Origin: Trichuris trichiura
Lineage: Eukaryota > Nematoda > Enoplea > Trichinellida > Trichuridae
Direction: 5' to 3'
Assembly (NCBI GenBank): GCA_037903355.1
Contig: JBAJFE010000026.1
Location: forward strand, 2,790,001-2,854,000
DNA: 64,000 bases
The stretch's first letter is position 1, and each line of letters begins with the position of its first letter. The position numbers and the translations under genes were made by a program. The notes beneath the pieces are model-generated. The model did no database searches. It saw only the letters and a list, made by a program, of their open reading frames with translations, and was not told the origin of the DNA. Shown here in pieces: positions 6,486-61,994 of this stretch.

Positions 6486-6683
6486 TACTTTGCATATATC
6501 ATAGTTGGTCTTGTGGTTCACGGGTTTGGCCTGTTTAATGTATCAGTAAGTAAACTTCAAAGTGCATTTTGAAGTTTACTTACAGGTACACCAAACAGGC
6601 CAAACCGGTGAACCAGAAGATCATCTATGAAACAACCAAAGCCTGTTAAAAGACACCCCGTCTCTCGAAATACTTTGCATATA
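6486..6683. mobile_element. Foldback ribozyme-tail element (no ribozyme core), 13-bp duplication
   Basis: The insert 6499-6670 (172 bp) is a near-perfect hairpin of the PLE tail block: GGCCTGTTTAATGTATC...AAGTAAACTTCAAAGTGC meets its reverse complement. The right end carries the terminal block CTGTTAAAAGAC...CTCGAAA. Identical direct repeats TACTTTGCATATA flank it at 6486-6498 and 6671-6683. This is one of the cleanest examples of the 13-bp duplication in the window. Confidence 0.8.
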
Positions 6684-8820
6684 GTTTATTTTACGAACCC
6701 ACATCTATTGAAGATTCAAAGGATTGAATACATAACATTCAGTAACGGGTTCAGAAATGTTCGTGGTAAAGTTAATTCACGGCTAGACTCGTTTTAAAAA
6801 ATCGATTTTATTCTTCCAAACTTTTAGGTTCACCCTTGGCCCATCCTTAGCGGTAAAAACTAATGGATATCCATTTGCAGTTTTTACCGCCGAGGACGGT
6901 GTAGACCTGGAAGCTTCGAAGAATAAAACGGCTTTGTAAAAACGGGTCCCACCGTAAATTAACTCCATCACGAAGACTAGAAATATGAAATTAATTTTAA
7001 GCTACGGTTGTACACTTAGCTACGAGAGATAATTCTAAAGAAATCCACTCTAGTTCGTTTGAACGCAAATGTAACTATTAATCTTTCTCACTCAAGTGGT
7101 TCTTACGGCAGTCTGGACCTTTGGCGACGGTATACTTATGATGGTGATCAGCTCAGAAAACTAAAATGTGGGAAGAGTTTTTGTAGTAGAGGAAATTCTG
7201 CAAGCAATGATGAATTCAAGTAAAAGCGAATGTAAAGATTAAAGCCTTTCGGGAAGCAGTGGAGCATTAGCGTTGCATCAGCAATGAAATTAACCTAGTA
7301 CAAGCTGCGAAGTTAAACATCTCTTACCTCATTTTTTAAACGTTTTTTATCTTATGAGTAAACTTATCCTAGCTCACAACAAGAACAAAATTTGAGCAGT
7401 TGTGTCAAAAGAGACTTCGAGAAAACAGCTACGAGAGAGCACTTAGTAACATTTACTGAATATTTAATTCCTTAAAGTAGTAGCACTTTTCCAGTGCAGA
7501 ATATCTTTCCACGCCTATCTTCATAGCCCGCTCAGCATGGAATTTAGGGAGAATGAATAGGCCTATTCAACCAAGCTGAAGATTGGATGCTTGGTAACTC
7601 AATGATGGATTTTCATTTTTGGTCTTTCTACGACTTCTTCCGTTCTCTGTAAGTATACCTACAAGAATCCGAATTAAGCGCCTTATTGACGAATGAGTGA
7701 GCAAATTGTTAAGAAAACCACAGAAAAACAATATCCGCAGCTTTCGGAACATTAGCTCGTTTCATGGTAGCTTAGGAGAGATCATTCCTCTTCTGTACCA
7801 TGGTAAAGATGCGATTACAGTGTCCCGAAAGTCGCGTTTATTTTCCCGCGATGTCCCTAACTAACTGCCCATTTATTCGTTGATAGAGAGCTAGTTTTGG
7901 TTTTTTACAGATATACTTACAAAGAACGGAAAAAGCTGTGGAAAGATCGAAAATGAGAAAGGTTTAACCAGCTATACTAACTAGATCATGACAAGAGTTT
8001 ACTATGCTTGTTCGTATCCGAAAATGTAGTGAATGCGTAAGGTTCTCGCGAGAAGTCAGAAATCCCAGGATTTACTTTGTAGTTAGCAGAGTTCGTCTAT
8101 TCGCTCGAAGAAAACGCCCCGCAACTGACACAGTTGTACAACGGGTGAACTATTCTATCGGAAAAGTTGAAATTTTCGATGATAAGAGCTTCCACTTCAA
8201 AGATATTGCGATCATCAACAACAAATGAGCACGATTAGTTCAACGAAGATAGAATTAAATTCTTCCATGAAAACGGCTGATCTGATTGATTATTCATTAT
8301 CATTTCTCAAATATGAACGCCACCATATGGTATATAGCAAAAGTGATTTTTGGACATTTAGTCACCAGTGAGAATTTATACTTCAGTATAAGACAGGAAC
8401 ACTGCAAGGCAGCTGCGAACAAAATACCAGGAAATCAACTTTCAGGTGGCAAGTATAACGCCTGGATGAAGTTTGCATTCACAGTGAAACACGCTGTGTA
8501 CAAAGCTTGCAAGGTGGGTGAGTGACCGACTCCAGAATCAAAGAGAGGTAACAGCTGCGCAATTTAGTGTCATCCTCTAGGCATCTGACAATCGTTAGTT
8601 TATTGGACGGCATAAATCAGGCAACGGCGAACACGCGCAACATAGGCTATTCTTGAGGAAAGCGATTGTAATGCACTTTACCCTATTATTAGCATTAATA
8701 TTATTGTTTTTATTTTCTTCCTTTTTTTTGAGGGATGCTTTTAAAACGTTTCTCGCAAAAATTTTTTGTGGCTTTTTTCAATTTGTTTTTTAAAAATAAT
8801 TTTTATCGCATAAACGTTAA
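6684..8820. other. No recognisable feature
   Basis: The region is AT-rich with scattered short frames. An imperfect inverted repeat around 6838-6895 (GTAAAAAC...GTTTTTAC type) is visible. No gene is supported. Confidence 0.4.
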
Positions 8821-9110
8821 GTACGGAGCTTTCGGGTCATTCCGGGACCAGCCAACAGCGCAGTGTGACCTGATGAACGGCACTGACTTTCAGTGCCGCT
8901 GAGGACGGGTCACGGGCGGTCTGAAAGCTACGGACTCTCATTAAAAGCTTTTGTAGTCTCAAGGCGACAAACTCCGTAAGAAACATTTAAAACATGAAAA
9001 CCTATAATTCCGTAGCAAAAAGCTATATCTTCAAAAGTAAACGTTATTTTCAAAAACAGGTTGAAAAAAAACCGCATAAATTTTTATAAGAAATTGTTAT
9101 AACAACAACA
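8821..9110. mobile_element. Degraded foldback PLE tail with two hammerhead motifs
   Basis: A minus-oriented ruined hammerhead (about 8824-8860, core CTGTTGG) faces a plus-oriented one at 8897-8932. The plus tail, with its AAAAGCTTTTGTAG...CCGTAGCAAAAAGCTATAT blocks, matches the tail at 25.02-25.12 kb, so both belong to one subfamily. Confidence 0.6.
8897..8932 (+). ncRNA. Hammerhead ribozyme motif, intact core
   Basis: CTGAGGA at 8899-8905 and GAAA at 8923-8926. Helix II pairs GGGTC with GGTCT through wobble pairs, so it is weaker than in other copies. GCTACGG follows. Confidence 0.6.
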
Positions 9111-9114
9111 ACAA

Positions 9115-9482
9115 CATTGAAAACAGGGTGCTTCGTAACGGGCTGTAGTTTCATGGCTGTAAGGTCTTCTACGGCTTTTCCCGTTTATTTTGTCTGTGCT
9201 GGTATCTGTAATTGAACGAAACAACTGCTCTACCAACGGATAGATGAGCCGTTATTAAGAAAATTGTACAGATATCAATGCACTCAACTTTTAATTTCAA
9301 AGCTTTCAGAACGCTCTAGTTCCGAAAGCTTTGAAGTTAAAAGTTGAGTGCATTGATACCTGTAGAATTTTTCTTAATAACGGCTCATCTATCCGTTGGT
9401 AGAGCAGTTGTTTCGTTCAATTACAGATACCAGCACAGACAAAATAAACGGGAAAAGCCGTAGAAGACCTTACAACCATAAA
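9115..9482. repeat. Large near-perfect palindrome of PLE tail sequence
   Basis: The sequence 9152-9310 is repeated in reverse complement at about 9322-9480. Each arm contains the block CCAACGGATAGATGAGCCG and a GGTAGAGCAGTTG segment. The centre has a GTTCCGAAAGCTTTG half of a hammerhead, but the CUGANGA half is lost. The flanks are CAA-rich, so a target duplication cannot be read clearly. Confidence 0.7.
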
Positions 9483-9502
9483 ACAACAAGGGCAACAACA
9501 AC

Positions 9503-9503
9503 A

Positions 9504-9596
<93 letters not shown>

Positions 9597-9606
9597 GTTA
9601 TTATTA
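9503..9606. repeat. (TTA)n microsatellite
   Basis: An almost uninterrupted TTA/ATT trinucleotide run of about 100 bp directly abuts the palindrome. Open frames of poly-isoleucine across it are artefacts. Confidence 0.95.
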
Positions 9607-9609
9607 AGG

Positions 9610-9800
9610 GGTTAGAGCTCTTACTATCAGGCTGACAGCGGGACAAGGCCAATCCCCAAAAGCTCCGTTTATTAAAAGGTGTGCGATTAAAAGTTTTTCT
9701 AGTTTTCCTTCCCACTGACCAAATAACAGGAAAAGCCGTAACTAACATCCCGAAATCCAGTTCCTCATACCAAAGAAGTTCAATCTTCAAGCATATTATC
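9610..9800 (+). repeat. Decayed ribozyme-tail copy
   Basis: CTGACAG at 9632 and CAAAAGCTCC are a hammerhead with both core boxes mutated. The following TTTTTCTAGTTTTCCTTCCC and AACAGGAAAAGCCGTAAC blocks match the tail at 11.1 kb. Confidence 0.5.
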
Positions 9801-9889
9801 AAAGTTAAAAAATAAATTCACGTAATAGATGTAGATATCCACGTAACGTTTAATTATGAAAGTAACACGTTTGTTAAAACAAACAAAAG

Positions 9890-10030
9890 ATTTTACTTTA
9901 GTAGCTTTTGAGGCTGATCTTTTCTCGTCGTCAGCGAAACAGCGTCTCGTAGCAGAAAAAAGAGACTAGGCTAGTGGCCAAAGGCTATGGCTGACGACGG
10001 GAAAAGATTAGTGCTTCACGCCTTTCTTTT
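9890..10030. repeat. Decayed foldback with paired CTGACGACG motifs
   Basis: CGTCGTCAGCG (minus motif, near 9926) and GGCTGACGACGGGAAAAGAT (plus, near 9990) face each other. The GAAA boxes are mutated, so neither is a plausible ribozyme now. Confidence 0.45.
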
Positions 10031-10670
10031 ATTTTAAGAAACCGTTATTTTAATAAACAAACTTACATATTTTTCAAAATTATTTTGGCGACTTTGGATT
10101 GTTCTAAACTTAGTTTTGTCCACAAGTTTCACGACTACTACTGAGTTGTCACAGGCGGAGACGGACGGAAGTTGGATCGTGCAACAGGGGAAGACTTTAG
10201 TGTCTGAGACAGTCGGCATTGAGAAATTGAATAGTGTTAAAGTATTTTGTCACTGTACCTTCGTTTCCCACTCCGTGTGTGTACCTGAAGTGACCGTGTT
10301 GTTCCCTTTTAGGCATTACAACGAACAACCTCCAAAATTATTGATCGCGCTTTTCCAAATCTCTTTAACAGCTACTGCTACGTCACGACTCATGGAACGG
10401 TTATGCCGCAAAAAAATGCATCGTTGACCTTAAGTAGAGCAAAAGGTGATTCACAGCATAGTAGCCTAGGGTGTACGGCAGTGGAACACTGCGTGGCATT
10501 TTCCAGAACTGAAGATGTCCTATTCACTTTATCCATCAATGTAGCAGGCTCGATTCATTGGTCTCTTCTGCATCTCAGCTAAGCCTTTCGGTTTAGCTTT
10601 TGTTCTCTTATAGCAGTGATTCCCAACAGGAGCCTTGCGGGTCCCGGTTATACATGCAAACCTCTTCACT
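10031..10670. other. No recognisable feature
   Basis: An open frame of about 103 codons (plus 10116-10427) has no family resemblance. CAGTGATTCCCAACAGG near 10614 resembles a hAT end but has no partner. Confidence 0.35.
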
Positions 10671-10765
10671 CATGTTAACTTTTCTGATGTTACGACTTTT
10701 CCTGTTGTTAGGTCGGTGCGAAATAAAAGTAAAAATCATTTTAATCGTACATGCATGAAATGAAA

Positions 10766-10802
10766 GGAGCTTTCGGGACTGACCTTGTCCCATCGTCAGC
10801 GC
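10766..10802 (-). ncRNA. Hammerhead ribozyme motif, intact core
   Basis: Read on minus: CTGACGA (10793-10799), then T, helix II GGGAC/GTCCC with five perfect pairs, loop AAGGTCA, then GAAA (10771-10774). It is the only intact copy where the usual extra C before helix II is T. Confidence 0.8.
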
Positions 10803-10994
10803 GGTAATAATGGCGTCGCGATTTGCTTACAACGTATGACCCAAGCATCAACTGAGACGAAAGGTCCGAGGTCAGCGAAGCGTGGATGTTTTACTGTCAC
10901 GAACTGACCCATACGCTTGCACACTCGAGCGGCTCTGTAGAGACCTTACAGTCAACAACCTGACGTGCCAGACAGTACCACGACGTCCCCTGGT

Positions 10995-11002
10995 TATATA
11001 AA
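10995..11002 (+). promoter_or_regulatory. Possible TATA box upstream of ribozyme copy
   Basis: TATATAAA lies about 48 bp 5' of the decayed hammerhead at 11050. A similar box stands about 36 bp 5' of the hammerhead at 63.4 kb. The repeated placement suggests an element promoter that starts RNA near the ribozyme. Confidence 0.35.
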
Positions 11003-11356
11003 CGCAAGGGAGCACGTTGCAAGCAGATCGAAACGCCGTTACCACCGCTTTGACAGCAGGACAGGGGGTCAGTCCTGAAAGCTTCGATTATTTCATCCAT
11101 TTGCGGTCAAAGCGATTTTTACTTTTACTTCACACTGACGAAACCACAGGAAAAACCGCAAGTAATGTCCTTGAACTTTACTCCTGTTACAAAGAGGCGC
11201 GATCTTCAAACACGTAAGTTTTCTCACGATAACAGATAGCAATTCTTTGATAGCACGGGGCGTAGACAGAGGAACTAGTCATCAGTGCAGCGTGGCACTC
11301 CTGAATCAATAGTGGCTTGCTGCATTTTCGCCAAGTCACTGACAATTCACAGATAT

Positions 11357-11570
11357 ACAGAAGTTCTTGAAGACAGGGTGCTTCACTACCACCATCGCTG
11401 ACGACGGGACAAGGTTAGTCCTGAAAGCTAAGAAATCTGTTAAATGATTGTTCTGAATTTTTCCTTAATAATTGCTCATCCATCCGTTGGTAGGGTATTT
11501 GCTTTGGTTTAATTCCAGACTCCATCAACGGACAAGTGAACATACCGTATAAAGAAATACACAGAAGTTC
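11357..11570 (+). mobile_element. Ribozyme-tail insertion with partial inverted end
   Basis: The insert starts with the inverted terminal block GAAGACAGGGTGCTTC, then the hammerhead, then tail with CTCATCCATCCGTTGGTAGGG. ACAGAAGTTC at 11357-11366 and 11561-11570 gives about 10-11 bp of direct repeat with the same placement as the 13-bp duplications elsewhere. Confidence 0.6.
11396..11432 (+). ncRNA. Hammerhead ribozyme motif, intact core
   Basis: CTGACGA at 11398-11404, extra C, helix II GGGAC/GTCCT (one G-U), loop AAGGTTA, GAAA at 11423-11426, then GCTAAG. Confidence 0.8.
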
Positions 11571-11639
11571 ATTGAATACTGAATAAGGCTGCACAGTTCC
11601 TCTTTTGGGCAGGAACTCGAAGTCGTTCAGAAACACCTA

Positions 11640-12617
11640 ACAATTTCTGCATTCGGTAGCTGGCGGGACGCTTGACATCGTGTCTTTAGGGGACTCTGCG
11701 AGCAGGGAAACGTGAATATCACAAGGAACTCTTTCTTTGACATCAAGCAACGCGATTCTTTATTTTTCCTTGTGCATTTTCTGTTTTAGGTTCGCTGAGT
11801 CTTAAATCTTTACTGTTGTTGCTTTTGCACTATTACAATTGTCCAAAGTCGCTTGATTCAAAAACTCAACATTAGATATTCATAGGCTTTCGTGAACCTC
11901 TTCAAATGTATAATCTTTATGGGAAGGAGATTTATCTGTTACGTAATTTCTGTTTGATCTGGCATTTCATCAGTAACTTGTTACCATCCGTAAACTAAAA
12001 TGGCTTATAATAGGTCGTAAGGAAATTTATGAAATGAAATAGCCATGTTTCATTTGAATTACGGCAGAACTGGGCTGCTCAGGGATAAGGGCAGTATCTT
12101 ACGGCTGTTCAATAGAGAGAGGAGAGACAAGGAGAGAGCAAAGAGCCACGTAAATCATAGTACTTGTCAGGAAGCAGACTGGACCAGGAATCTCTTTCCC
12201 TAGTCGTTTTTCCGGCAAAATTTCCAGTGGTCAGTACAGTCGCGAAGAGTAATTAACTCATCAACGATCCTTCTGCACAGATCAGTTATTCTCAAAGGTC
12301 AATATCAGCCCAGGGGAAATGAAGGCCAAGAAAGTACAGCTCGCTTCAGGGGAACTGCTAAACGCCATGAGAGCAAGGAGGAAACTCAAGTAAGGTGAAT
12401 GATGAGAAAAGAAACAGGAAGACTATTAGTCTCGACTGCACTTAACCTCCTTTCTCCTCCAATTTGCGGCGGAAAACAGTTCAGGGGATACATGCCAATC
12501 ATATCAGGGGTGATGAAAAACCTGACCCTGAGAAACACAGACTTAAAATTCTTGCCTTTCGGCTGATTAATTCAGATAATCACGGTTCTATTTTAGTGAA
12601 AACTGAAGTTCTTATAA
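11640..12617. other. No recognisable feature
   Basis: I see no gene or complete repeat in this interval. Confidence 0.4.
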
Positions 12618-12824
12618 CGGACTAACCCGTAAGTAAACTTCAAAAAGCCCTACCAGAAACTGGATGAACAAACTGTTAGAGAAAATACAGAACAATTCAA
12701 TACCCTAAGTTTTGGAACTGCTCTTGTTCCACCATTAGCGGTGTAAGGAAGATGTTTATTCAGTAAGGTGGTTAAATGGGCATATGGAAACAATGGGCGC
12801 GAATCAGCTCAGTGGGGCGCATCA

Positions 12825-13000
12825 TTGGAATTTATTCATTAGCGCACTCCACACCTCGCTAACCGCCACCCCGTGGTCGCGGTTGATGGTGAAATTGTTT
12901 TTAATGCAAAGCATCTCTTTTATACGCCTTAGGTAAAAAAATATGTTGACGTACAAGAACGCCGAAAGGAGATTCAATGGAGAACCGGCAGCCGGCCCTG
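12825..13000 (-). pseudogene. PLE reading-frame C-terminal end (left arm)
   Basis: The minus translation ends with a YLRRIKEMLCIKNN-type block, INRDHG and SEVWSALMNKF, the same ending as the copy at 63.5 kb. Only the last 50-60 residues remain, with no GIY-YIG core. Confidence 0.7.
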
Positions 13001-13104
13001 CGCGTCCACTGAAAACAGACCCTCGAAAGGCCATGTAGACGGCGATAAAAGCCTCCGTAATCGCGGAGCACCTTTCTTAGTGCGCGTTCGACCAGCGACC
13101 GAAA

Positions 13105-13245
13105 TTAATCTGCCAAGAGAGCTTTTGCTCGCCTAAGGCGTATAAAGGAGGCAATTTACATCAAAAGCAATTCCATCATCAATCGCGACAATGGGGCTGC
13201 GGTTAGCGAGATATGAAGTGCGCTAATTAATGAATTCCAATGCTG
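13105..13245 (+). pseudogene. PLE reading-frame C-terminal end (right arm)
   Basis: The plus translation shows LRRIKEAIYIKSNSIINRDNG and, after a stop, SALINEF. It is the mirror partner of 12825-13000. Confidence 0.65.
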
Positions 13246-13327
13246 CGCCATACCGAGCTAATTCGCACTGATTGCTCCCATGTACCTATTTAACCACCTT
13301 ACCGAATAAACACTTACACCGTTACAC

Positions 13328-13362
13328 AGCTGACAACGGAACAAGATCAGTTCGAAAACATG
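13328..13362 (+). ncRNA. Decayed hammerhead ribozyme motif
   Basis: The core reads CTGACAA (G8 lost) at 13330, helix II is GGAAC with GTTC, and GAAA is at 13354. The opposite arm holds an even more decayed partner near 12712-12745. Confidence 0.55.
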
Positions 13363-14720: not shown

Positions 14721-14722
14721 TA

Positions 14723-19488: not shown

Positions 19489-19843
19489 TACCTGAGGATA
19501 ATTTCGGAAGACTGGGCGTCTTTTAACAGGCTTTGGTTGTTTCATGGTTGATTTTCGCCTCACGGCTTTGGTCTGTTTGGTGTATCTGTGTGTAAACTTC
19601 GAAATGCCCTATCAGCGAATGGATGACCACAATGTTAGACAAAATACAGAACAATTCAATACCATAATAATAATAACAATAATATTCAATACCCAATTCA
19701 ATATGATATTGAATTGCTCTGTATTTTCTCCAACAATTTGCTCATTTATTCGCTGGTAGAATATTTTGAAGTTCATTTACAGATAAATCAAACAGGCCAA
19801 AACCGTGAACCGAAGATCAATCAACCATGATACCTGAGGATAA
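19489..19843. mobile_element. Foldback ribozyme-tail element (no core), exact 13-bp duplication
   Basis: The 329-bp insert 19502-19830 is an inverted pair of the PLE tail. The left arm starts with the terminal block TTTCGGAAGAC...GTCTTTTAACAGG; both arms contain the AATGGATGA/TCATTTATTCG and TTACAGATA...CAAACAGGCC blocks. An ATAATAATAACAATAAT run sits at the centre. TACCTGAGGATAA is repeated exactly at 19489-19501 and 19831-19843. Confidence 0.85.
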
Positions 19844-34470: not shown

Positions 34471-34597
34471 AAGTATACGAAATTCTTTTTTCTTTTTTTC
34501 CCTCTTCGTAACGGGTATTGTAAATTTTTATTCTGAATTTTTCGCGGAATTTTGGAACCCGTTCTTCTAAAAGTTTATTTTATTTTAAAAAACTAAC

Positions 34598-34634
34598 GGA
34601 GCTTTCGGGCCTCTCCGTGGCCCGTCATCAGCGT
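34598..34634 (-). ncRNA. Hammerhead ribozyme motif, intact core (left arm)
   Basis: Read on minus: CTGATGA (34625-34631), extra C, helix II GGGCC/GGCCC, loop ACGGAGA, GAAA (34603-34606), GCTCCG. Identical to its mirror partner. Confidence 0.85.
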
Positions 34635-34925
34635 AATTGTACCGCCAGTCGGGTCGGTCTTTATGGTTGCAAGCCGCCCCATCCGACCAACTTTGCAGAG
34701 AGACCTACCGCCAGTCAAAGCATGTTTAAAATCTGAAACAAAAATTGGAGGTTCGCATGCCGCCGTCGTGGGAGGTCGGTTGGAAGCTCGCTGCGCCGTC
34801 TGACTGACTAGGCGGGACCGAAACCTGACGGCTCAAGGTACAGCTGACGGCGGTAGGTCTCTGCCAAAGTTGGTCGGATGGGGCGGCTTGCAACCATAAA
34901 GACCGACCCGACTGGCGGTACAATT

Positions 34926-34963
34926 ACGCTGATGACGGGCCACGGAGAGGCCCGAAAGCTCCG
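34926..34963 (+). ncRNA. Hammerhead ribozyme motif, intact core (right arm)
   Basis: CTGATGA at 34929-34935, extra C, perfect five-pair helix II, GAAA at 34954-34957. A transcript through the whole element would contain this one and the antisense of the other. Confidence 0.85.
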
Positions 34964-35056
34964 TTAGTTTTTTAAAATAAAATAAACTTTTAGAAGAACG
35001 GGTTCCAAAATTCCGCGAAAAATTCAGAATAAAAAGTATACGAAATGTGCTAAATA

Positions 35057-35801: not shown

Positions 35802-36023
35802 AATCAGTTGAACTCGAAAGACAGGATGTCTTTTAACAGGCTGAGTTGTTTCATAGTTGATCTTCTGATTCACGGGTTTGGCCTTTTGGATGTATTTGTA
35901 AGTAAACTTCAAAGTGCCCTACCAACGAATGGATGAGCAAATTGTAATTTTGAAGTTTACTTACAGATACATCCAAAAGGCCAAACCCGTGAATCAGAAG
36001 ATCAACTATGAATCAATTGAACT
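35802..36023. mobile_element. Foldback ribozyme-tail element (no core), 13-bp duplication
   Basis: The 196-bp insert 35815-36010 is a near-perfect hairpin of the tail block GATTCACGGGTTTGGCC...TTGTAAGTAAACTTC. The left end carries the terminal block CGAAAGAC...GTCTTTTAACAGG. Flanks AATCAGTTGAACT and AATCAATTGAACT match at 12 of 13. It lies 165 bp upstream of the first recognised exon of the EGF gene. Confidence 0.8.
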
Positions 36024-36187
36024 ATTACTGAAAATATTAGTATTCATGCAAATATATATTGCACTTAGGAGCGTATTGGTGGACAGTTGAAAGACAATTA
36101 CCATGTTGCGATTGTAAATAGATACAGTGATATATAGAACACTTGCACTTTAGGGCTGATCCTTTTGTCATGCACTTTGTTTACTAG

Positions 36188-37290
36188 TTCCATGAGTGGT
36201 TACGTTTGCCCTGGTTTTGGCAATATGGACATTTTCAGCCAGACGTTTACTGATCCATTAGGAGTCTACCAATGCGTCACACCTGTGCTAAAGGAAACAT
36301 ATCTGAAAACTCTGGACTTAGATGAGGATGAAAGCATTTTTTCAATGGGAGACTACTGCACCAAAATATACAAAAATGGGGACCTGGAATTTTTAATCTT
36401 TGATGAATGGCGTGAATTTTATTTGCTTCTCCAAGAAGAGTGGTTCAGTAATGGAGGATTCCATAGGAATATGACTTTTGATGAACGAACACTAAGAATT
36501 CACGCAGGATTTGAAATTCAAAAACCACCAACAGCAATAAATAATTTGCCTGGAGAAAGCTCAAGGCAGAACTCTGCTGCGACATATAGTGTCCAAACTT
36601 ATAAAAGCGGAATCAGACACTCGTATAATATCACTAACGGGCACGTAAATTTGGGTGATTTACATACGTTATGTTTACTGAATAAAGAAACGTTCAGTGC
36701 GGGTATTCATGATTATCCGCAGTGTGTTGCGCTACAACTGAAGAAAGGCGCAAAACATTTTGAGTTTAGCCAACCTTTTAAATGCAAGAATAACACCGGT
36801 TGGGATCTTTTCCTCTGCCGTCATGAAGCCTATCGTTCTTGTGGAGCAAAAGCGGGCAAACTTTTAGGGCAATATTTTTATGATGATTCAGGCAACTGCT
36901 CAAGAAAGTACAGCGTCAGTACTTTAAATTGGGAAGACCTTCCCTATAGACAATCTTGCCAAAGCAATTATGTAAATGAAAGCGCTAAATGCATTAACTG
37001 TACAGGAAATTGGGGTGTGTGGACTCAGTGGTCATCTGTGTGTGGTTGGGCGTATCGTATTCGTTCCAGACATTCGGTAAAACATCCTCATGCTGACTGT
37101 TCTCAACCAGAAGCTCCCTGTTGCCGTCAGTGGAGTGAAACGAATAAAGAGCCGTGCAAAAATTTTGTTCGTGGTACTTCAATAAATCTCGCAAAAGACA
37201 GCTGCACCACTGGAACAAAGCGGATTGACACTTCAGGGCACTATTACTGTCGCTGTATGTATGGTTCAACTGGTCCACTGTGTCAGATCA
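36188..37290 (+). CDS. EGF gene exon 1: N-terminal region, TSP1-like segment, first EGF
   Basis: The open frame covers about 1.1 kb with no stops. A pyrimidine-rich acceptor (GTTTACTAG) precedes 36188. The first in-frame ATG is 36192, but no hydrophobic leader follows, so it is probably an internal exon (entering phase 2). The first 200 residues are unassigned. A cysteine-bearing stretch (CKNNTGWDLFLCRH...CGAKAGKLLGQYFYDDSG) comes next. WGVWTQWSSVCGWAYRIRSR near 37010-37070 matches the W-x-x-W start of thrombospondin type 1 repeats. An EGF-like end (YYCRCMYGSTGPLC) closes the exon before a consensus donor AGTAAGT. Several N-X-S/T sequons (NMT, NIT, NES, NCT) support an extracellular location. 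Confidence 0.85.
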
Positions 37291-40200
37291 GTAAGTATAG
37301 CAAACATTTGCTTTACAACTGTACTTATAGATGTTTAGAAATAAAGTGTCCACTATTTCCTTGCATTTACGGGAAGTGTAAAAGTGAAAAGTGTCACTGT
37401 ACAAGCGGGTACACTGGAATATTATGCGAAAAATGTACAACTTTATTTTATTCATTCCATTTTTAGAAAGTACCTAAAAGATTAATTTTGAGTTGCACGG
37501 CGAAGAGCAGGAGTAGAAAAAAATATCAGCAGTGATGTCAGAGACATTTTTCTATTATACTGTTGGAGTGACTTTTTCAATCATCCTCTGGCTTCAGCAG
37601 AGTTAACCTTTGCATAGTTCACTTCATGTCACTGTATTTAAAGCTCTGCTCATAGTTTAACAGAAAACTAACAAAATTAAACGGTGCCTAAATGAGGTGA
37701 CTGTTAAAAATATCAGAAATGTAATGTTTTCCACTACTGTGATGAATGCCTTAGCGTATTCAACAATGAATAGCAAAGTTAAGGCTCGCAGGTTCTGCAT
37801 GAAACATTCAAAGAGTTCCAACAAGCACCGTGTACGTCGGTCAAGTTTCGTACGGAGCTAAAAAAATTTATGCTTAAGTGGCCGCATCATGTATGAATTT
37901 GACCTGTGATCAAAACAATGACTGTGTAATAGTAAGAGGTGTGCCAAACTGCTACTGTCGATGGCATCCTGGTGCATATGAAATGAATAAAAACTGCGTA
38001 ATAGGTATCTCTTTATCTTGCCTACACTTGCTGCTTTACTATTAGTTGCAGTTGCTAATGCTTGCTTCAACAACCCGTGTAAGCATGAGTCAACTTGCAC
38101 GCCTAACAGTTTTGGCTACTCGTGTGCATGCAGTGGAGGATTTACCGGAAAACGTTGTTCAGTTGGTAAGAAAGTCCACGACCGATGGACGTTATTTCAA
38201 TACTAACGAATGTTGCAAGGGTTTGTTGGCTAGTTTAAAAAATGTTACTGTAGTTTCTGAGTCTGACTTAAACTTTTTCTAAATAGTGTAGATTTTCAGT
38301 GAATCTGATTTAAAAGTGTACTTCATTTTCAGCTTTTTCTCTTCTACACAGAAGTAAAGAGGTCCAGACAGGGCATCTAAGATTTAGGAATTTTTTACAT
38401 AGCTTTTTCCAGAATATAAGAATTGTGAAGAACAGCCTTGCAGAAACGGTGCATCATGCCAAATGAGAAATAACACCTACGTTTGCACTTGCAAGTGGCC
38501 ATTCATTGGAAGAACTTGTGAAATAGGTAAGTCAAACTTAGATACAGAGGCGTTAGTCTATGTCATAGGTTTTCAAACTTTTTCGTTCCATCGCCCTCCC
38601 CCTCCGTGAGAAACCTTTTGCAATACCACTATTCGTGGGAAAATTTTGTAGAAAAGACTTCCATACCGATCATCTTTGATGGCCTCTCTGCCCTCCTTGA
38701 AACATCTTATCCATTCATAGACAACTGATTTAGATGATGCACTACTTCCGTAAACCTGCTGCAAAAATTGAATAACCTTCTTCGGCTGCCAACCAAGTTT
38801 AGACAGAAATTTAATGTTAGCTCTGACCTCAAAATGAAGATTTTCCATATCATGAGAAAAAAGATTACTTTAGGAGCAGCTTGTACAGCTTGTACTGGGG
38901 CAGCGTCGGATAAGGCTACTTCTCCATACAAGTCTGAAGATAATGGAGATAAGATTAAACATATTTTGGCCCATCGGTTGGCGTCCTTTTGACACTGCAC
39001 CATCTTAACGAGAACTTTTCGAACATTCTTCGTATTTAGTCAAGAAACAGATCAGCCAACCACTGAGCTAACCACGCTTGCTTATGACCATAGTGAGTAA
39101 CAAAACCAAGAGGGAATCTGCCTGTTCTGATGATTCCACAGCATCAGAAGGCTTTTCAATCATTAGACATACTTTCGCTGAGGAAAATTGAAAAAGCGTA
39201 GACAAGGAAAACTTAGCTGCGAATTGGAAATTCAAAATGTAAGTTCGCTAATTCACAATACGAAGATTGGACTCCCAGGGAATGAAATCTTCAGAACATG
39301 ACTTTGGTAATTTGCAAGCTAATTCAACCATTCCAAGACCAATAGCGCTTTGCTTCACCGGTATTTTTTCAGCTTGAGCAGCAAAGTAAAGGTGTGCCGT
39401 CGCTTGTGTGAACAGTGGGCACTCTTACGCCGGTGTCTCTGATAGCCCTCCTGCACTAGGGACAATTCTGCCAGAGTTCCTCTTATGTGATTCCCAATGG
39501 CCCTGCAGGGCGTTCCTATCGCCCCCCTGTGCTCTCTCATCGCCCACTTTAAGAACCTATGACCTAGAACATAGGTTCTCAAACTTTTCGCTCCGTCGCC
39601 CCCTTGTGAACGCTCCCGAACGCTAGTGCCTCCCAATTCTGATTGGTCAATTTTGGGTCCGCTGATTAGCTGAAAGGTAGGACGTGGCGTAGCCGGAGAG
39701 GTCATTAGGTTCTCAAACTTTTCCCTCCGTCAACCCCGGGTGGGAAAATTTTTGCAATACCACTACTCAAGAGAACATTTTGCAGAAAAGGCTTTTACCC
39801 TTCGTCACGTAGTAGACGTACTACACCACTCTAGCTTTTCCACCAACCATTTTATGATGGTAAAATTTCTGCTTGCCTTTTATATTACCTCTCACATTTT
39901 TCAGAACATAAAGTCACATAAGCAAAAAGCATTCATTAGCCTTTCCGGAGAAAAAGCAATCAATGTGCGTCTATTTGTTTTTTTACCCACACCAAACAGA
40001 ATCGTAGTGACAACAAACCAGATTGAAGTGAAAGCGCTTAAGCGAAAAGATACAAAAGAAACTGTAACGCAAGTTTGCGACTGCGCATGAACGGAAACTA
40101 CTCAAACTGATAGGTGTGCTTGATGCAGTACAAGCAAGTTGTCTATGTTTGGAAGGATCTTTGTCACCATCAGTCTAAGGTCGCCTCGATTCACTATGTC

Positions 40201-54155: not shown

Positions 54156-54214
54156 CAATGGAAGACAGCGGGTGTTGTGGCCCAGTGAGCACCGTAACTA
54201 AGTTAAAGGACAGA

Positions 54215-55043: not shown

Positions 55044-55505
55044 TTCTAGACCAGTGATTCTCACGGTGGCGCACGTCCCCCATTGGGGGGCCTTCTTGAA
55101 GTCCAGGGGAACCCAAATCGCCAAGGGAACCCTTGGGGGGCACATGCCCCACCTGCGCCATCGTGATGAAGTGCATAGGAAGGTGGGGTTAGCGGGTCAG
55201 GTATTGTGCGTATTGGTTTACAGAAAGTTGCATGCTGTTACACCCCGCAATTCTGATTGCCTGGAAGTGAGGACAGGGGAGGGGAGGTAAGAACGTAAGA
55301 TTATTCCTACAGCCTATGTCGGAAAGGTTTTCCCAACATAACTTTGTGCAGCAACTACATTATGCTGTCCCGATTACTCCTGGTCCTCTCTTCCAGCCAA
55401 TCAGCGCGATTGAAATTAGCCAATCAGAATTGGGGACCCAAAAACTCGGAAACGTTCACAGGGGGGGCCCTGGCAACCCGGACCTTGAGAAACACTGCTC
55501 TAGAC
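55044..55505. mobile_element. hAT MITE derived from the 29-kb hAT family
   Basis: The insert 55052-55497 starts CAGTGATTCTCACGGTGG and ends CCTTGAGAAACACTG. Flanks TTCTAGAC and CTCTAGAC are a 7-of-8 hAT-type duplication. The right 110 bp match 29.27-29.378 kb, the 3' end of the hAT whose transposase half is at 28.5-29.2 kb. Confidence 0.8.
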
Positions 55506-55729
55506 TGTAGTTGTGTACAGCAGATTCCTGGGGACTTAGCCACAACTCGTTCCCCATTTTTTGAATGTTTGTTTGGATGTTTTTAACGCTTGCTCTAACC
55601 CCGGAATTAAAGAGGCAGGACGGATAACCAACGGCTCGAGATTGCAGTTGACATTTGATGTCCCTGCTGAAGTTGCTCAGGTGGAAGAGCTTGCGAGCAG
55701 CAAGGCTTGCCTAATCAGTGACAGCGTGG

Positions 55730-55766
55730 CCCTGATGACGGGACATGGTTAGGCTCGAAAGCTTCA
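55730..55766 (+). ncRNA. Hammerhead motif, intact core but weak helix II
   Basis: CTGATGA at 55732-55738 and GAAA at 55757-55760. GGGAC and GGCTC pair only in part, so folding is doubtful. GCTTCATC follows. Confidence 0.55.
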
Positions 55767-55769
55767 TCG

Positions 55770-56215
55770 GTAATTAAATTTTTTAGACATAGAACGTTGC
55801 TTTGTGGATGGCTTGTTCACTACAAAACAAGAAAATTTACCCAACACTCGCTATGAACAGAAAAATGAAAATTACAACCAAAGAAAACTTTGATTAACGG
55901 AAGTTTTCGTTAAAGGAACTGCCTGTTGCAATAGTCGCTTCCGATGATCAGGTTTCTACTGCATGCAGAGGAATAAGGAAGAATGTAGAAACTAAATTTG
56001 ATGCTTTCTTAAAGCTACCTACAGTTGGTACATCATCAATTATCACAGGAATGCCTTCTTCCAGTTACCGATAAGTCGACCAGGGAAAGAAATTCATTGG
56101 AATGTCACTGCATCATTACAGTCTTCTTGGAACACTAGTTCATTGCATCGATAATTGTTACGGATGCATGCATTCTCACATGTCTGTGTACATTAATAAT
56201 TACCATATACGGATA
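55770..56215. other. No recognisable feature
   Basis: Nothing assignable is seen. Confidence 0.35.
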
Positions 56216-56217
56216 TA

Positions 56218-57420
56218 CAGTCGGCCCTCGTTATCCGCGGTTAATTCGTCCAAAATTATGAGCGTTTTACCGCATTAAGCTGGATCCGTGTTATATAGGA
56301 TACCCTGTGAAAAAGGTTAAATAGCTTATATTCTAGCCGCGTACCTCATTTCCCCTTGAATTCCTTCCGGAACGGTTATCATACCCAGTGATCCTTCAAA
56401 GCTTGGTAGTACAGAATCTAGCTACGCGATAAAGACATCAATGAGATTGCGCTTGTCCAATGAGGCCAACCATCAGAGTTCTGGCCGTTAGATGCAAGAA
56501 AGGATGAAAATAAGATTCTCTTTCTCTGAACGCCTGGGAAACGCTTTGCTTTAATGAGCTAAGCAGTGTACTAGTGCGCCGAATGGGTACAGAGCAGGGG
56601 AAATATAAAATACATAGGCGCACTTAAGCAAAAATAGTGAACATCACACAGAACACATCCACACAGAGCGAAACGTTTACAGTCCATTTTGTCAACATTT
56701 TTTCGTTTCGCTTGGCGCATCAGGAATCAGTTTACCCACTTTCTGTAGGTGGGCGCAGATCCCCTGGAGACCGGCCAGTCTTACGGTTTGTTAAACTTGT
56801 TGGTAGCGAAACTTCTCGCCTTAAAATGTTAGGCTCCGCAGCTGCTGGAGCTTTATTTAAAAACATTATGGAATTCTCTCCTTTTTTTCTCTTCATCGAA
56901 TAAATCTTGTAGCGGCTTCAACGAAGCCGTTATTCCTCGTATAACCATGTTGCCATGTTCCATGGATGGACCGTAGTCAGCAATCGTGTCCTTTAGGACC
57001 TGCGCTTGCAGAAAAATACTGGCAAGCTTTTGCAGCGTCCAATCTGAGGGTGTCTGAGCTTCTCTATCTTCTATAACGTCATCGTCGTCGTCGTCACTGC
57101 CCTTAGGTGATTGCATCAGTACCTCGAGTTCCTCGTTAGGGAACGGTTTTCCAAAATCTTCTATGTGCTCCCCGATATCGTCTTCTATCATGCCGGAGAA
57201 ACCCTTACCTCCCAACTCCTTGGCAATATTCACTACGTCCATGATCTCTTCATTGATGGCACCTAACTCCTCACATTCACTGACTGCGTCTCCCCACAAG
57301 CCAGCAACCACTGACTGTTCTATGCTTTATCTCGTGTACCGCCGTGCAAAAGATGACGGCACTATTTCACGTCGGACGAACCGCACTGTATAGATCCCAG
57401 CGCATAACGAGGGCCGACTG
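56218..57420 (-). mobile_element. Tigger/pogo deletion derivative, copy 2
   Basis: Starts CAGTCGGCCCTCGTTATCCG and ends CATAACGAGGGCCGACTG, with TA outside both ends (56216-56217, 57421-57422). It keeps the transposase C-terminus on minus and lacks the catalytic region. 1203 bp. Confidence 0.88.
56853..57311 (-). pseudogene. Tigger transposase C-terminal acidic region
   Basis: An open frame of 152 codons: VAGLWGDAVSECEELGAINE, VVNIAKELGG, EDDIGEHIEDFGKPFPNEEL, an Asp run, DWTLQKLASIFLQAQ and ITASLKPLQDLFDE. The NEEL block recalls Tigger/CENP-B family tails. It is the longest surviving frame of the three copies. The upstream junction is the internal deletion, so it has no catalytic part and is not an autonomous gene. 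Confidence 0.75.
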
Positions 57421-57422
57421 TA

Positions 57423-57895
57423 TTTTATCAACTCCAAAACAGAACTGTTGTATTATAAGTTAGGCTTGTGTGACCTGATTTCTTTTAGCTGTAAGCTAAT
57501 TCAAGAGCTTAGCCTTGATAAAAAAAGGCTGCACAGACCACTGGCATTCAATCGATTCTAACATTTAGCGCGGCTCCATTACAGTTAGTCGTATCCATTC
57601 CGCTGCGAAAGACTTCCTACTGTGAGAGTTCACTATGCCTGCGCTGTAACCGGTTTAATGCCTTCCAGCCCCACTTCATCTTAAGCATAAGCTTAAACCA
57701 GAACATGTATCAGTGATGGCATTGAAATAATGTGTGGTCAATGGATAGCGATGGCGGAACTCCAACTAGCAAACCAATGCCGCCGCGTCCGGTTTGGCAT
57801 TAAGTGCACTGACTGCTCGTTTCGACTTACGAACATCGTGAGTCGTAGACCCAGTATGTTGTCTGCAACTTTAATTATAGGATTCACGTACTGAT
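57423..57895. other. No recognisable feature
   Basis: Nothing assignable is seen. Confidence 0.35.
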
Positions 57896-57899
57896 TTAG

Positions 57900-58560
57900 G
57901 TACAAATCACAATCAATACGAAGGCAGTGCTTCTAAGAAGTTAAAAGGTTGTATTAAGTACAAAGAGGCTCCTCCGTAGAAGCACTGCTTGTTGACCTGT
58001 TAAAATGCTCCTTTTAAAGTTATTTGACAAATTAGCAACAGTCTTTGCTGTAAAAAGTTTTTCTTGCTTTTATGAAACGGCATGCCACCTTGCTCTGCAA
58101 CGAACGCCCGCTGCTTTAGTGCTTTGATAAGCCTGTCGCACATTTTCTCTGAATTCCCTTAGGAAACCTTTTCTACAGTGTTAACAATATTGCCTTCGTC
58201 GTTACAGTGATCATGATTACCTTCATTGGGTACTATTTCAGGTCTTTCACCATCGGCCAAATAATAAGCAGTCAGAGCTCGTTATCAATGCTAGTAACCT
58301 CTTCAAAGTTCGCAGTCCACTCACAGATTCGAGGGTAGACTTCTTGCATACGTAAAGAGGCTAGATATTTTCTTCTCTAGTGGCACGCGATAGTTTTCCA
58401 AATCATCGTTTTATTCACCTTCATCAAAGCGCGTAGCTGCGGGACGCAGATTGCGCCACGCAAGCACAATTGCACATTTAGTCACTGTGTTCCAAACGGT
58501 GGCGATATCTTCCAGGATTTTTTTGATAGCGCCAACATGGGATGCCAACGGTTTTTTTCA
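57900..58560 (-). pseudogene. Degraded transposase end, Tigger-like
   Basis: The minus translation near 58540-58440 reads ILEDIATVWNTVTKCAIVLA then WRNLRP, resembling the W..V...T..N.W+KL.P block after the Tigger catalytic core. Further fragments (SLQSKVACRFIKARKTF) follow with many stops. Identification by eye only. Confidence 0.45.
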
Positions 58561-59231
58561 CGTGAAACTGCAGTGATCAGCATTATCACTCTCGCCTCAA
58601 ACTGAACCGTACTTAATAGCCGTTTGACATTCATTGCTACCGAAAGTCACGCTATCTGAGTTAAAATTTTACGCTCACTAACTTTGATTAATAATTTTCA
58701 ATTAGTCAGTGACGCGCCAGAAACTGAGCGTTCATTTATCACCCCCTGGCATTATGCTCTCCTCATCTTTAATCGTACTGAGCACCCATCGAGCATTCAT
58801 CACTATCAAAATGAGAGTTGACGTTCAGTAAGTTTGACTGAGAGGTTTCTACTCACGGTCACTGAGAGGGGAGGACCAAGAAGTGAGAGTGTCATTACTT
58901 CTCTTATTAAAACCGACAGGACACTAAATCGAAATTACAGCGAGACAAATAAACAAGGCTGAATAATATTAGGTATACCTATACTTCGTTTTGATAATTA
59001 CAGCATTTTTCGATATCTCCTTTTCAATGTCAAGGTTTTACAGCTGAGCTACTGTGCTAAATAATTTTTCTATTCTTTCTGTCATTAGCTGCAATAATGA
59101 AACTGTTTATAGCGTATGGGCAAAATGTTGATATTAATACTGCACAGGTAACAGAAACAGCCTGATTCAGAGCAGATTACACAGGACAGCACTTATTAAG
59201 TCTGCGATGCAGAACGGGCTATTGTTTAGCT
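58561..59231. other. No recognisable feature
   Basis: Nothing assignable is seen. Confidence 0.35.
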
Positions 59232-59340
59232 AGTAATCAATATAATGTTTTTGTGCGGGACTATATGTTTTCATATTGAAATGTCTTTATTACGGATCAT
59301 GTGTCCCTTTGGCATGTACACTAAACGTAAAAATTCCCCG

Positions 59341-59375
59341 GAGCTTTCAGGTCTTTCGCGGCCCGTCTTCAGCGG
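59341..59375 (-). ncRNA. Hammerhead ribozyme motif, intact core (left arm)
   Basis: Read on minus: CTGAAGA (59366-59372), extra C, helix II GGGCC/GACCT with one mismatch, GAAA (59345-59348), GCTCCGGGG. Confidence 0.75.
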
Positions 59376-59390
59376 TCAAAGGATCTTTGA

Positions 59391-59428
59391 CCGCTAAAGA
59401 CGGGTCGCGACAGACCCGAAAGCTCCGG
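59391..59428 (+). ncRNA. Near-intact hammerhead motif (right arm)
   Basis: CTAAAGA (core G5 changed to A), extra C, perfect helix II GGGTC/GACCC, GAAA at 59418-59421, GCTCCGGGG. Confidence 0.7.
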
Positions 59429-59508
59429 GGAATTTTTACGTTTAGTGAACATGCCAAAGGGACACATGATCCGTAATGAAGACATTTCAATATGAAGTAA
59501 TCAATATA

Positions 59509-60118
59509 GGCACCACCGCTGATTACATGGGTAATCATGAATCTGATAACTGGGCGGCTATTTCATCGAGCTTTTCGAACTAGACCAATAGAATCAAACA
59601 ATTCAAATTCAAAACGTGTCAAAAATTTAAGGTCATGATTTCGCAATTTCATTCTGTAATTTGTGATTCCAATTTAGACGAGGGAGAGAGCAAAGAAATA
59701 CCAGCGCAAGAAGTCTTATTTTTCTTTCGCGCAAATGGGAACGTTGACTTCGGTAGGTTCATGTGTCTACTTTACCACCGACAGGATGCTTCTTATCTAA
59801 TCTACAATTTAGGCCATAGCTAGACGTTTATCACAGCATTCACCCGGCCGTACCGCTCAGTCTGCTAAGGCTGACTCGAGCAAAACAAGACAGAAACCTA
59901 ATGGAATTTTGTCAACATTTTTTCGTGAAAAACTTTAGTTTAAACTTACTTTAGCAAAGAAAAAGAAATCTATACTCTGTTTCAATAAACCATACGCATG
60001 CATTAAGAGAAAAACATGCAAGAAATGGCACTTTAGGATCAGCCACATTTAGAATCTATCAAGTCTGCATCTACAGCTCTGCATTGAACATATGACACGC
60101 CGTTTGAAATTTACGCAG
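59509..60118. other. No recognisable feature
   Basis: A 62-codon frame (59635-59823) is unassigned. Confidence 0.35.
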
Positions 60119-60120
60119 TA

Positions 60121-61307
60121 CAGTTGGCCCTCGTTGTCCGCGGTTATTTCGTCCGAAGTTTCGAGCGTTTCACTGCGTTAAGTTGAATCCGCGTTATATA
60201 GGATACCCTATGAAAAGACCAAGCTTATATTCTAGCTCCGTATTTCGTCCTGCCCCTTGAATTCCTTCCGGAACGGTTATCATACCCAGTGATCCTTCGA
60301 AGCTTGGAACTACAGAATCTAGCTACGAGATAAAGACATCAACGAGACTGCGCTTTTCCCTGGCGCCAGCCATCAGAGTCCAGGCCGTTAGATACAAAAA
60401 AGGATGAAAGTGAGATGCTCTTTCTTTAAACGCCTGGGGATCACCTTGCTTTAATGAGCTAAGCGATGTACCGGTGCGCGGAATGGGTACAGAGCAGGGG
60501 AAATATAAAACGCATGGGCACATTTATGCAGAAATAGTAAGCATCACACAGAACACATCCACATAGTGCAAAATGTCTACAGCAAAAGCGTTTGGAGCAT
60601 TAGGAAACAATTTACCCACTTTCTGTAGGTGGGCGCGGATCCCCTGGAGACCGGCCTGTCTTAGGGTTTGTTGAACTTGTTGGTAGCAAAACTTCTTGCC
60701 CTAAAATGTTAAGCTCCGCAGCCGCTGGAGCTTCATTTAAAAACGTTGTTATAGGGAACTATCTCTCCCTTTTCTTCGCTTCATCGAATAAATCTTGCAG
60801 TGCCTTTAACGAAGCCGTTATTTCTCGTGTAACCGTGATGCTACGTTCCATGGATGGATCATTGTCAGCAGTCATATCCTTTAGGGCCTGCGCTTGCTGG
60901 AAAATACTGGCAAGCTTTTGCAGCGTCCAATCCGAGGGTGTTTAAACTCCTGTATCTTCCGTAACGTCGTCGTCGCTGCTCGTAGGTGATTGCATCAGTT
61001 CCTCGAGTTCCTCGTTGGTGAACGGTTCTCCACGATCTTCTATGTGCTCCCTGACATCGTCTTCTGTCATGTCGGAGAAACGCTCACCTCCCAACTCCTT
61101 GGCAATATTCACTATGTCCGTGACCTCCTCATCGATGGCACCCACCTAAGTCTTCGCATTCACTGACTGCGTCTCTGCCCAAACGCTTCCAGCAACTACT
61201 GACCGTTCTAGAATTTATCTCGTGTACTGCCGTGTAAAAGATGACGTCGCTATTTCACGCCAGACAAACCGCGTTGTATAGAACCCGTGGTTAAGGAGGA
61301 CCGACTG
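60121..61307 (-). mobile_element. Tigger/pogo deletion derivative, copy 3
   Basis: Starts CAGTTGGCCCTCGTTGTCCG and ends GGTTAAGGAGGACCGACTG, flanked by TA (60119-60120, 61308-61309). Same internal structure as copy 2, more diverged, 1187 bp. Confidence 0.85.
60610..61200 (-). pseudogene. Tigger transposase C-terminal acidic region
   Basis: Read on minus: GAIDEEVTDIVNIAKELGGE, EDDVREHIEDRGEPFTNEEL, then after a stop SDWTLQKLASIFQQAQ and a SLKALQDLFDEA block. Stops and frameshifts break it more than copy 2. Confidence 0.7.
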
Positions 61308-61309
61308 TA

Positions 61310-61582
61310 TGTATGGCGCCTATAGCAGAAACGTGGTATATATTTGTTGTATAGAGCTAATAACCCGCAGACATATTGGATACTGTACTCTGTCTTCTGT
61401 GCAGTTGCCACGTATCGTTACTCCGTGCTGCTTTCTTTGTGTACTTATTAAACGTTGTGCTTACAAGATACCACAATATTGCTTATAAAGAAGATGCTTG
61501 TAATATTCAGTGCCTCTACAGTACACATGCAGTATACCATATCCATACCATATATCGCATAAACATGTCCTGTGAACAAATA
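61310..61582. other. No recognisable feature
   Basis: Nothing assignable is seen. Confidence 0.3.
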
Positions 61583-61742
61583 CAGTGGAAACTCCAAAGT
61601 TGACCACCTATCTATGTCGATCACTTCCGTAAGTTGACCGAATTTTGACTAGTTGTTTGGCCCGCACGTTAATGAGCGCAAGAAGGACAACCTCTATACG
61701 CTGACCACCTCCGTAAGTGGGAAGTTGACCGCTTCAGTTTTC
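61583..61742. mobile_element. MITE family 'CAGTTGAACCTCC', copy 3, truncated
   Basis: Starts CAGTGGAAACTCCAAAGTTG after TA and follows copies 1 and 2 (CCGCACGTTAATGAGCGCAAG) until about 61742, then breaks off. Right end missing. Confidence 0.7.
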
Positions 61743-61800
61743 TCTGCGTAGTCGCTAGGAGCTGTTAACAGTCAGTGCCTGAATGTGCTATTACTCAACA

Positions 61801-61994
61801 TAGCGAAGCTTTTCTTTTTTTTCTTCGTAACAGGTTTTTTAAAATTTTTATTCTAAAATGTTCGCGGGATTTCTAACCCGTTGTTCAGTAAACGTTTATT
61901 CAGAAAAAACGTTTTACGGAGCTTTCGGGCCTCTCCGTGGCCCGTCATCAGCGTAATTGTACCGCCCGTCGGGTCGGTCTTTAGCGAAGCTTTT
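61801..61994 (-). mobile_element. Single-arm hammerhead element, exact 13-bp duplication
   Basis: The 168-bp insert 61814-61981 reads on minus as a short leader (GACCGACCCGACGGGCGG), hammerhead, the same tail as the 34.5-kb foldback, then CCTGTTACGAAG and an A-rich end. TAGCGAAGCTTTT flanks it at 61801-61813 and 61982-61994. It shows that a single ribozyme-tail unit also moves with a 13-bp duplication. Confidence 0.88.
61918..61955 (-). ncRNA. Hammerhead ribozyme motif, intact core
   Basis: Read on minus: CTGATGA (61945-61951), extra C, helix II GGGCC/GGCCC, loop ACGGAGA, GAAA (61923-61926), GCTCCG. Core and helix identical to the 34.6 and 34.9 kb copies. Confidence 0.85.

What the first reader, a model, noticed from the sequence alone, without database searches (positions are those of the whole stretch)
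6486..61994. Uniform 13-bp direct repeats flank ribozyme-tail insertions
Exact 13-bp flanking repeats are visible at 6.5 kb (TACTTTGCATATA), 19.5 kb (TACCTGAGGATAA), 34.5 kb (AAGTATACGAAAT), 59.2 kb (AGTAATCAATATA) and 61.8 kb (TAGCGAAGCTTTT). Near matches occur at 35.8 (12/13), 50.5 (12), 15.8 and 3.0 (11/13), 12.6 and 0.6 kb (10/13). A constant length over different subfamilies and architectures suggests one integration machine making a fixed 13-nt staggered cut.
Basis: seen in the sequence. Interest (0 to 1): 0.88.

Follow-up and report, generated by a model that had tools for sequence, protein, structure and literature searches.

The report
Penelope retroelements with 13-bp target duplications
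A whipworm-like genome carries many copies of Penelope-type retrotransposons that are usually flanked by a duplicated stretch of about 13 bases of the target, and the target shows a mirror-image signal on both sides, which points to a paired cutting enzyme that opens DNA with a fixed offset and copies RNA onto the broken ends.

Summary
All five exact 13-mers are where stated. The inserts are 3' ends of Penelope-like elements (PLEs): head-to-head inverted 'pLTR' arms with a hammerhead-like core; one C-type copy in the same genome has an 854-codon open frame with reverse transcriptase and GIY-YIG domains. Of 63 paired-arm inserts, 47 carry a flanking direct repeat versus 1.55% of 2000 mismatched flank pairings. 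Of 32 unmutated duplications, 14 are exactly 13 and 26 are 12-14. For 3 of 22 targets, uninterrupted copies exist elsewhere; the eight read align without gap. Independently, the target is two-fold symmetric: T at the cut, A at +6/+7 outside the duplication (29 insertions), repeated in 11 others. In 56 of 63 pairs one arm ends 22-45 nt beyond the other. Best reading: a dimeric PLE endonuclease makes a 13-nt 3' stagger and both 3' ends prime reverse transcription. PLEs, inverted pLTRs and tails are known; a 13-bp duplication with a symmetric target was not in the open papers I could search. Length is 13 give or take 1, not strictly constant.

The parts
6313..6325 (+). target duplication TACTTTGCATATA, first of three copies
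6326..6485 (.). insert with B-like tail at its right end, between copies 1 and 2 of the 13-mer
   Evidence: read; similarity to the B tail judged by eye
6486..6498 (+). target duplication TACTTTGCATATA, second copy (shared by two inserts)
6499..6670 (.). A-family foldback: left arm untailed, right arm with about 40-nt tail
6671..6683 (+). target duplication TACTTTGCATATA, third copy
19489..19501 (+). target duplication TACCTGAGGATAA, left copy (exactly 13; neither edge can be confused with element sequence, judged by eye)
19502..19830 (.). A-family foldback, tail on the left
19831..19843 (+). target duplication TACCTGAGGATAA, right copy
34471..34483 (+). target duplication AAGTATACGAAAT, left copy
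34484..35033 (.). B-family foldback; arms 34525-34695 and 34865-35035 100% complementary; about 41-nt tail 34484-34524 on the left only
35034..35046 (+). target duplication AAGTATACGAAAT, right copy
35802..36023 (.). A-family foldback with imperfect duplication AATCAGTTGAACT / AATCAATTGAACT (12/13)
59232..59244 (+). target duplication AGTAATCAATATA, left copy
59245..59495 (.). C-family foldback, about 25-nt tail on the left; arms 95% complementary
59496..59508 (+). target duplication AGTAATCAATATA, right copy
61801..61813 (+). target duplication TAGCGAAGCTTTT, left copy (exact run is 14 with the next base)
61814..61981 (-). one-armed, 5'-truncated B-family tail (tail on the left)
   Evidence: read; hammerhead-like core at 61951
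61982..61994 (+). target duplication TAGCGAAGCTTTT, right copy
583..2452 (.). older PLE foldback (11/13 flanking repeat 583/2440) whose arms encode GIY-YIG remains (YIGETGNTLEHRFNEH)

Best explanation
The inserts are copies, mostly truncated, of canonical Penelope-like retroelements in a Trichuris-like nematode genome. A symmetric dimer of the PLE protein (RT + GIY-YIG endonuclease) binds an AT-flanked target and cuts both strands 13 nt apart, leaving 3' overhangs that usually end in T or TT. Each 3' end can prime reverse transcription of PLE RNA at one of two start sites about 22-45 nt apart near the RNA 3' end (with or without 'tail'). When both ends prime, the two 5'-truncated cDNAs meet and give a head-to-head inverted insert; when one primes, a one-armed insert. 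Repair of the overhangs leaves 13-bp direct repeats. Shown: PLE identity, duplication length mode in the sample, uninterrupted target copies, symmetric target, one-tailed/one-untailed rule in the sample. Inferred: dimer, overhang polarity, twin priming, joining.
For: PLE identity: L099, a C-type copy, has an 854-codon open frame (stop to stop) with RVT_1 and GIY-YIG both over Pfam cut-off; 81 GIY-YIG matches at E <= 0.01 in the genome; the best named relatives are Trichuris RT proteins, 48% over 86% of the query to 65% over 39%. Duplication: 47 of 63 pairs vs 1.55% null; 14 of 32 unmutated repeats are exactly 13, 26 of 32 are 12-14. Uninterrupted targets: 3 of 22 sent (17, 23 and 1 matching places), 8 read, all without gap. 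Symmetric target, 29 insertions: T at -1 69% and 79% (p 4e-5, 2e-7); A at +6 59% and 66%, at +7 66% and 48% against 32% (p 3e-3, 2e-4, 2e-4, 0.05); symmetry correlation 0.40 at zero shift, 0.25 at shift -1, at most 0.14 elsewhere. Eleven other insertions: A at +6 in 15 of 22 sides (p 5e-4), at +7 in 14 of 22 (p 2e-3), A/T at +7 in 22 of 22 (p 5e-5). Tails: one tailed and one untailed arm in 56 of 63 pairs and in 29 of 32 pairs of the B and C hit lists. Published biochemistry fits: the purified Anolis PLE cuts and extends both strands, prefers ATT on each, is predicted to dimerise, and has two RT starts that bound the tail (PMC11167929, main text).
Against: 16 of 63 paired inserts show no duplication, and 12 of 20 further regions show none in the stretch fetched. 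Exact lengths range 11-16; only two junction pairs (19.5 kb, L045) seemed free of junction ambiguity, both 13, so a 12-nt stagger with ambiguity is not excluded. T at -1 may partly come from how run ends are chosen; +6/+7 lies outside the run. In one search single sides are not all significant (right +6 p 0.1, left +7 p 0.1). Arms of one insert are more alike than arms of different inserts (A 96.3 vs 92.0, B 95.3 vs 91.7, C 94.5 vs 87.4%), which also fits self-priming on one molecule. 6 of 63 pairs have two tailed arms and 1 has none. The 6.3-kb target used twice does not match the motif well (by eye). The Anolis enzyme showed no difference in RT start between strands. The ORF was shown in one C-type copy; that this protein drives A and B is inferred.
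Confidence: 0.8

Rival explanations
1. The protein makes the 13-nt cut, but only one 3' end primes; the inverted arm arises by self-priming (snap-back), as proposed for rotifer Penelope on antisense templates.
For: Arms within an insert are more alike than between inserts; self-priming was proposed in PMC3846280 (passages).
Against: In most paired inserts both outer ends are RNA 3'-region sequence ending at one of two preferred positions next to the duplication, which snap-back at the centre does not by itself explain; the Anolis enzyme extends both strands in vitro.
Confidence: 0.2
2. They are foldback DNA transposons or MITEs moved by a transposase with a 13-bp stagger.
For: Inverted arms and nearly uniform target duplications.
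Against: The two ends differ by a 22-45-nt tail in 56 of 63 pairs; a one-armed truncated insert (61.8 kb) and inserts with no second arm found (L056, L036, L115) have the same duplication; C-type arms flank an RT + GIY-YIG frame.
Confidence: 0.03
3. The cut offset is loose (about 10-14) and 13 is only the commonest apparent length because short target matches to the element ends lengthen the repeat.
For: Many junctions can be assigned either way by 1-5 bases (by eye); exact lengths 11-16; published rotifer Penelope inserts have 8, 9 or 10 bp, or none.
Against: The outer motif sits at a fixed distance from both repeat ends; the two junction pairs that seemed unambiguous are both 13.
Confidence: 0.15

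Closest known systems
Penelope elements of the rotifer Adineta vaga (PMC3846280, passages)
   Same: RT + GIY-YIG ORF, inverted pLTRs, optional 31-bp tail on one inverted pLTR, target duplications, one empty allele with a single copy
   Different: there 8, 9 and 10 bp, or none; here mode 13 in three subfamilies, and a symmetric target motif
PAc, Poseidon-type PLE of Anolis carolinensis (PMC11167929, main text)
   Same: cuts ATT-rich DNA on both strands, extends both, two RT starts bounding a 30-40-bp tail, hammerhead, predicted dimer
   Different: the words duplication and stagger do not occur in the main text; no difference in RT start between strands was seen there, while here one start per end is the rule
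Metazoan retrozymes (PMC7761336, passages)
   Same: small non-coding elements with type I hammerhead motifs, thought to use PLE machinery
   Different: those occur as tandem repeats; these are head-to-head inverted or single

Membership tests
Penelope-like elements (canonical, endonuclease-bearing) | single ORF with reverse transcriptase and GIY-YIG endonuclease | tested here: met
   L099:664-3225:-, 854 codons; RVT_1 48 bits, GIY-YIG 26 bits, both over cut-off. One copy tested; GIY-YIG fragments in the window and L090
Penelope-like elements (canonical, endonuclease-bearing) | pLTRs in inverted arrangement with an optional short tail at one end | tested here: met
Penelope-like elements (canonical, endonuclease-bearing) | RT groups with telomerase-like RTs in a phylogeny | not tested
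   no tree built; weak PDB matches include telomerase RT (E 0.024) beside other RTs, which is no test
Penelope-like elements (canonical, endonuclease-bearing) | minimal type I hammerhead in the pLTR | tested here: inconclusive
   a CTGANGA-C-stem-GAAAGC core recurs, but no Rfam hammerhead hit in the window, one sub-threshold hit genome-wide, and four cores fold little better than shuffles (z -0.3 to -1.1)
TIR DNA transposon / MITE | symmetric terminal inverted repeats reaching both ends | tested here: not met
   one end has a 22-45-nt extension in 56 of 63 pairs
Metazoan retrozyme | tandem head-to-tail units with hammerheads | tested here: not met
   units are inverted or single; tandem repeat search finds no such array in the window

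The most novel reading that the evidence does not exclude
Penelope-type integration is a symmetric two-ended reaction: a dimer opens a palindrome-like site with a fixed 13-nt 3' stagger and its two RT active sites start on the two neighbouring start sites of the same RNA, one per target end, which is why nearly every insert has one tailed and one untailed arm and why both arms match one template.
Probability: 0.35. Interest if true: 0.8.

Novelty: new variant of a known kind. Interest (0 to 1): 0.58.

Why it matters
How Penelope-like elements integrate is unsettled: the duplications in the rotifer paper I could read in passages are 8-10 bp or absent, and inverted pLTRs were explained there by self-priming. 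A genome with at least dozens of readable inserts, a duplication mode of 13, uninterrupted copies of some targets and a symmetric target motif gives a direct prediction (cut positions, overhang polarity, spacing) that a purified enzyme can test.

Tried and rejected
Rfam hammerhead searches in window and genome found nothing above threshold. DNA-transposon reading rejected on end asymmetry. The Rfam small-subunit rRNA search to name the organism did not complete three times; the organism is inferred from proteins.

Literature: searches for PLE + hammerhead + target site duplication, 13 bp, GIY-YIG + TSD (17), pLTR (19), variable length (66), twin priming (79), stagger (80) and Trichuris + Penelope (69; the 12 of 31 listed are parasite epidemiology). 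Searches listed 20 of 48 and 20 of 81. I saw passages of nine papers and the main text of one; four of the five papers that hold '13 bp' or '13-bp' were checked, and there the phrase concerns other things; PMC2848041, on Sadhu elements, was not opened, nor were most other listed papers. Craig 2021, Cervera 2014 and Pyatkov 2004, the most relevant by recall or citation, are not held. So 'not in print' is not shown.

Rows dropped before counts: one search dropped L040 (same locus as W35), W12, L017 (microsatellite), L050, L051, L069, and used 29 of the remaining 41 for the motif; one search also dropped L081 and L082 (copies of the L118 insertion) and L088, and 13 of its lengths were entered by hand. 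For the second motif set, 8 of 20 new regions showed a repeat; 6 were used (L116 and L119 left out as doubtful) plus 6 earlier loci not in the first motif set; one search removed L118 because it duplicates L082. For the empty sites 22 targets were sent and only the best 40 candidates were scored, so silence on the other 19 says nothing.

Full report
Observation. All five exact 13-mers are present at the stated places; TACTTTGCATATA occurs three times (6313, 6486, 6671), bracketing two adjacent inserts. Thirty shuffled windows have on average one exact direct repeat of this kind, so five around hammerhead-like tails are not chance. A further one (15 bp, 32991/33530) brackets another such tail.

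What the inserts are. Most are head-to-head inverted repeats whose arms carry a recurring core CTGANGA-C-stem-GAAAGC. Window stretches near some tails translate to GIY-YIG motifs. The genome (72.7 Mb, 62 contigs) has 81 GIY-YIG matches at E <= 0.01. One copy, L099, has an 854-codon open frame (stop to stop) with RVT_1 and GIY-YIG between C-type arms, itself inside an A-type foldback. The flanking repeats of both, about 10-13 bases, the A one with mismatches, were read by eye; the script there found no exact run of 7 or more between the outer edges. This is a canonical Penelope-like element. The nearest named proteins are Trichuris muris and T. suis RT proteins, and a window ORF is 73% identical to a T. 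suis protein and 43% (over 55%) to a T. muris one, so the host is inferred to be a whipworm closer to T. suis.

Sampled duplications. Three tail families were used as DNA queries: B (47 hits), A (52), C (55); all are lower bounds and favour copies like the query. Of 63 paired-arm inserts examined (six from the window; one locus counted twice), 47 have a direct repeat scoring 9 or more at their outer edges, against 1.55% of 2000 mismatched pairings; 16 have none (A 17 of 24, A2 1 of 1, B 16 of 21, C 13 of 16, D 0 of 1). Among 51 insertions with a repeat, 32 are unmutated: 11 bp 1, 12 bp 6, 13 bp 14, 14 bp 6, 15 bp 3, 16 bp 2. Junction bases that could belong to either target or element inflate some; the two junction pairs that seemed free of this (19.5 kb and L045) are exactly 13 (by eye). 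Inserts with no second arm found behave alike (L056 13, L036 14, L115 13).

Uninterrupted targets. Of 22 reconstructed targets sent together, three matched copies elsewhere across the whole junction: that of L012 at 17 places, of L031 at 23, of L033 at one (84%). Eight were read; all align without gap. Six carry the exact repeat once, L092 carries it with one mismatch and L097 with three. These are other copies of the host repeat, not alleles.

Symmetric target. Aligning 29 insertions separately at each junction shows T at the last duplicated base (69% on the tailed side, 79% on the untailed side reverse-complemented) and A at +6 and +7 outside the duplication (59 and 66%; 66 and 48%; background 32%); the two half-sites correlate 0.40 at zero shift, 0.25 at shift -1 and at most 0.14 at other shifts. 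Eleven other insertions repeat it: A at +6 in 15 of 22 sides, at +7 in 14 of 22, A/T at +7 in 22 of 22. This is evidence for a two-fold symmetric cutting complex at fixed spacing that does not rest on the length of the repeat alone. The overhang polarity is inferred: if target 3' ends prime, they are the ends of the duplicated stretch, that is 3' overhangs.

Tails. In 56 of 63 pairs one arm starts at the tail end and the other 22-45 nt inside; six have both tailed and one has neither. In the B and C hit lists it is 29 of 32, with two and one (the C16 pair scored as both tailed is probably one of each, by eye). Both samples favour tailed copies, so the rarity of untailed pairs is less sure. Arms within an insert resemble each other more than arms of different inserts, so both probably come from one source locus or one RNA.

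Mechanism. The Anolis PLE cuts and extends both strands, prefers ATT on each, is predicted to dimerise, and starts reverse transcription at two sites that bound the tail, without a difference between strands (PMC11167929). With a 13-nt staggered cut this gives the anatomy here: both ends primed yields an inverted pair, one end primed a one-armed insert, and repair of the overhangs 13-bp repeats. Dimerisation, overhang polarity and twin priming are inferred for this genome.

Known or new. PLEs, inverted pLTRs, tails, duplications of 8-10 bp and one empty allele are published (PMC3846280, passages). A duplication peaking at 13 with a symmetric target was not found in the searches, which cover open-licence papers only and of which I opened few. 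I file it as a new variant of a known kind.

Noticed in passing
window 6313-6683: The same 13-mer occurs three times around two different inserts (B-like, then A), as if the identical target was used twice.
   Followed up: partly
   Followed up: partly
window 39572 / 39706: 18-bp exact direct repeat TAGGTTCTCAAACTTTTC 134 bp apart; nature not examined.
   Followed up: no
L099 1-3430: A C-type PLE with a long open frame sits inside an A-type foldback, so the families insert into each other.
   Followed up: partly
L017: A B-type foldback inserted in a long AAT microsatellite.
   Followed up: no
window 9504-9606: 34 copies of ATT, a long microsatellite.
   Followed up: no
L081, L082, L118: What looks like one insertion present in three places with shared flanks, so the host sequence seems to have been duplicated after the insertion; the unmutated copy (L118) shows 13 bp.
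   Followed up: partly
window 36165-37466: ORF with EGF-like and thrombospondin-like stretches (by eye), 73% identical to a Trichuris suis EGF-like domain protein.
   Followed up: partly
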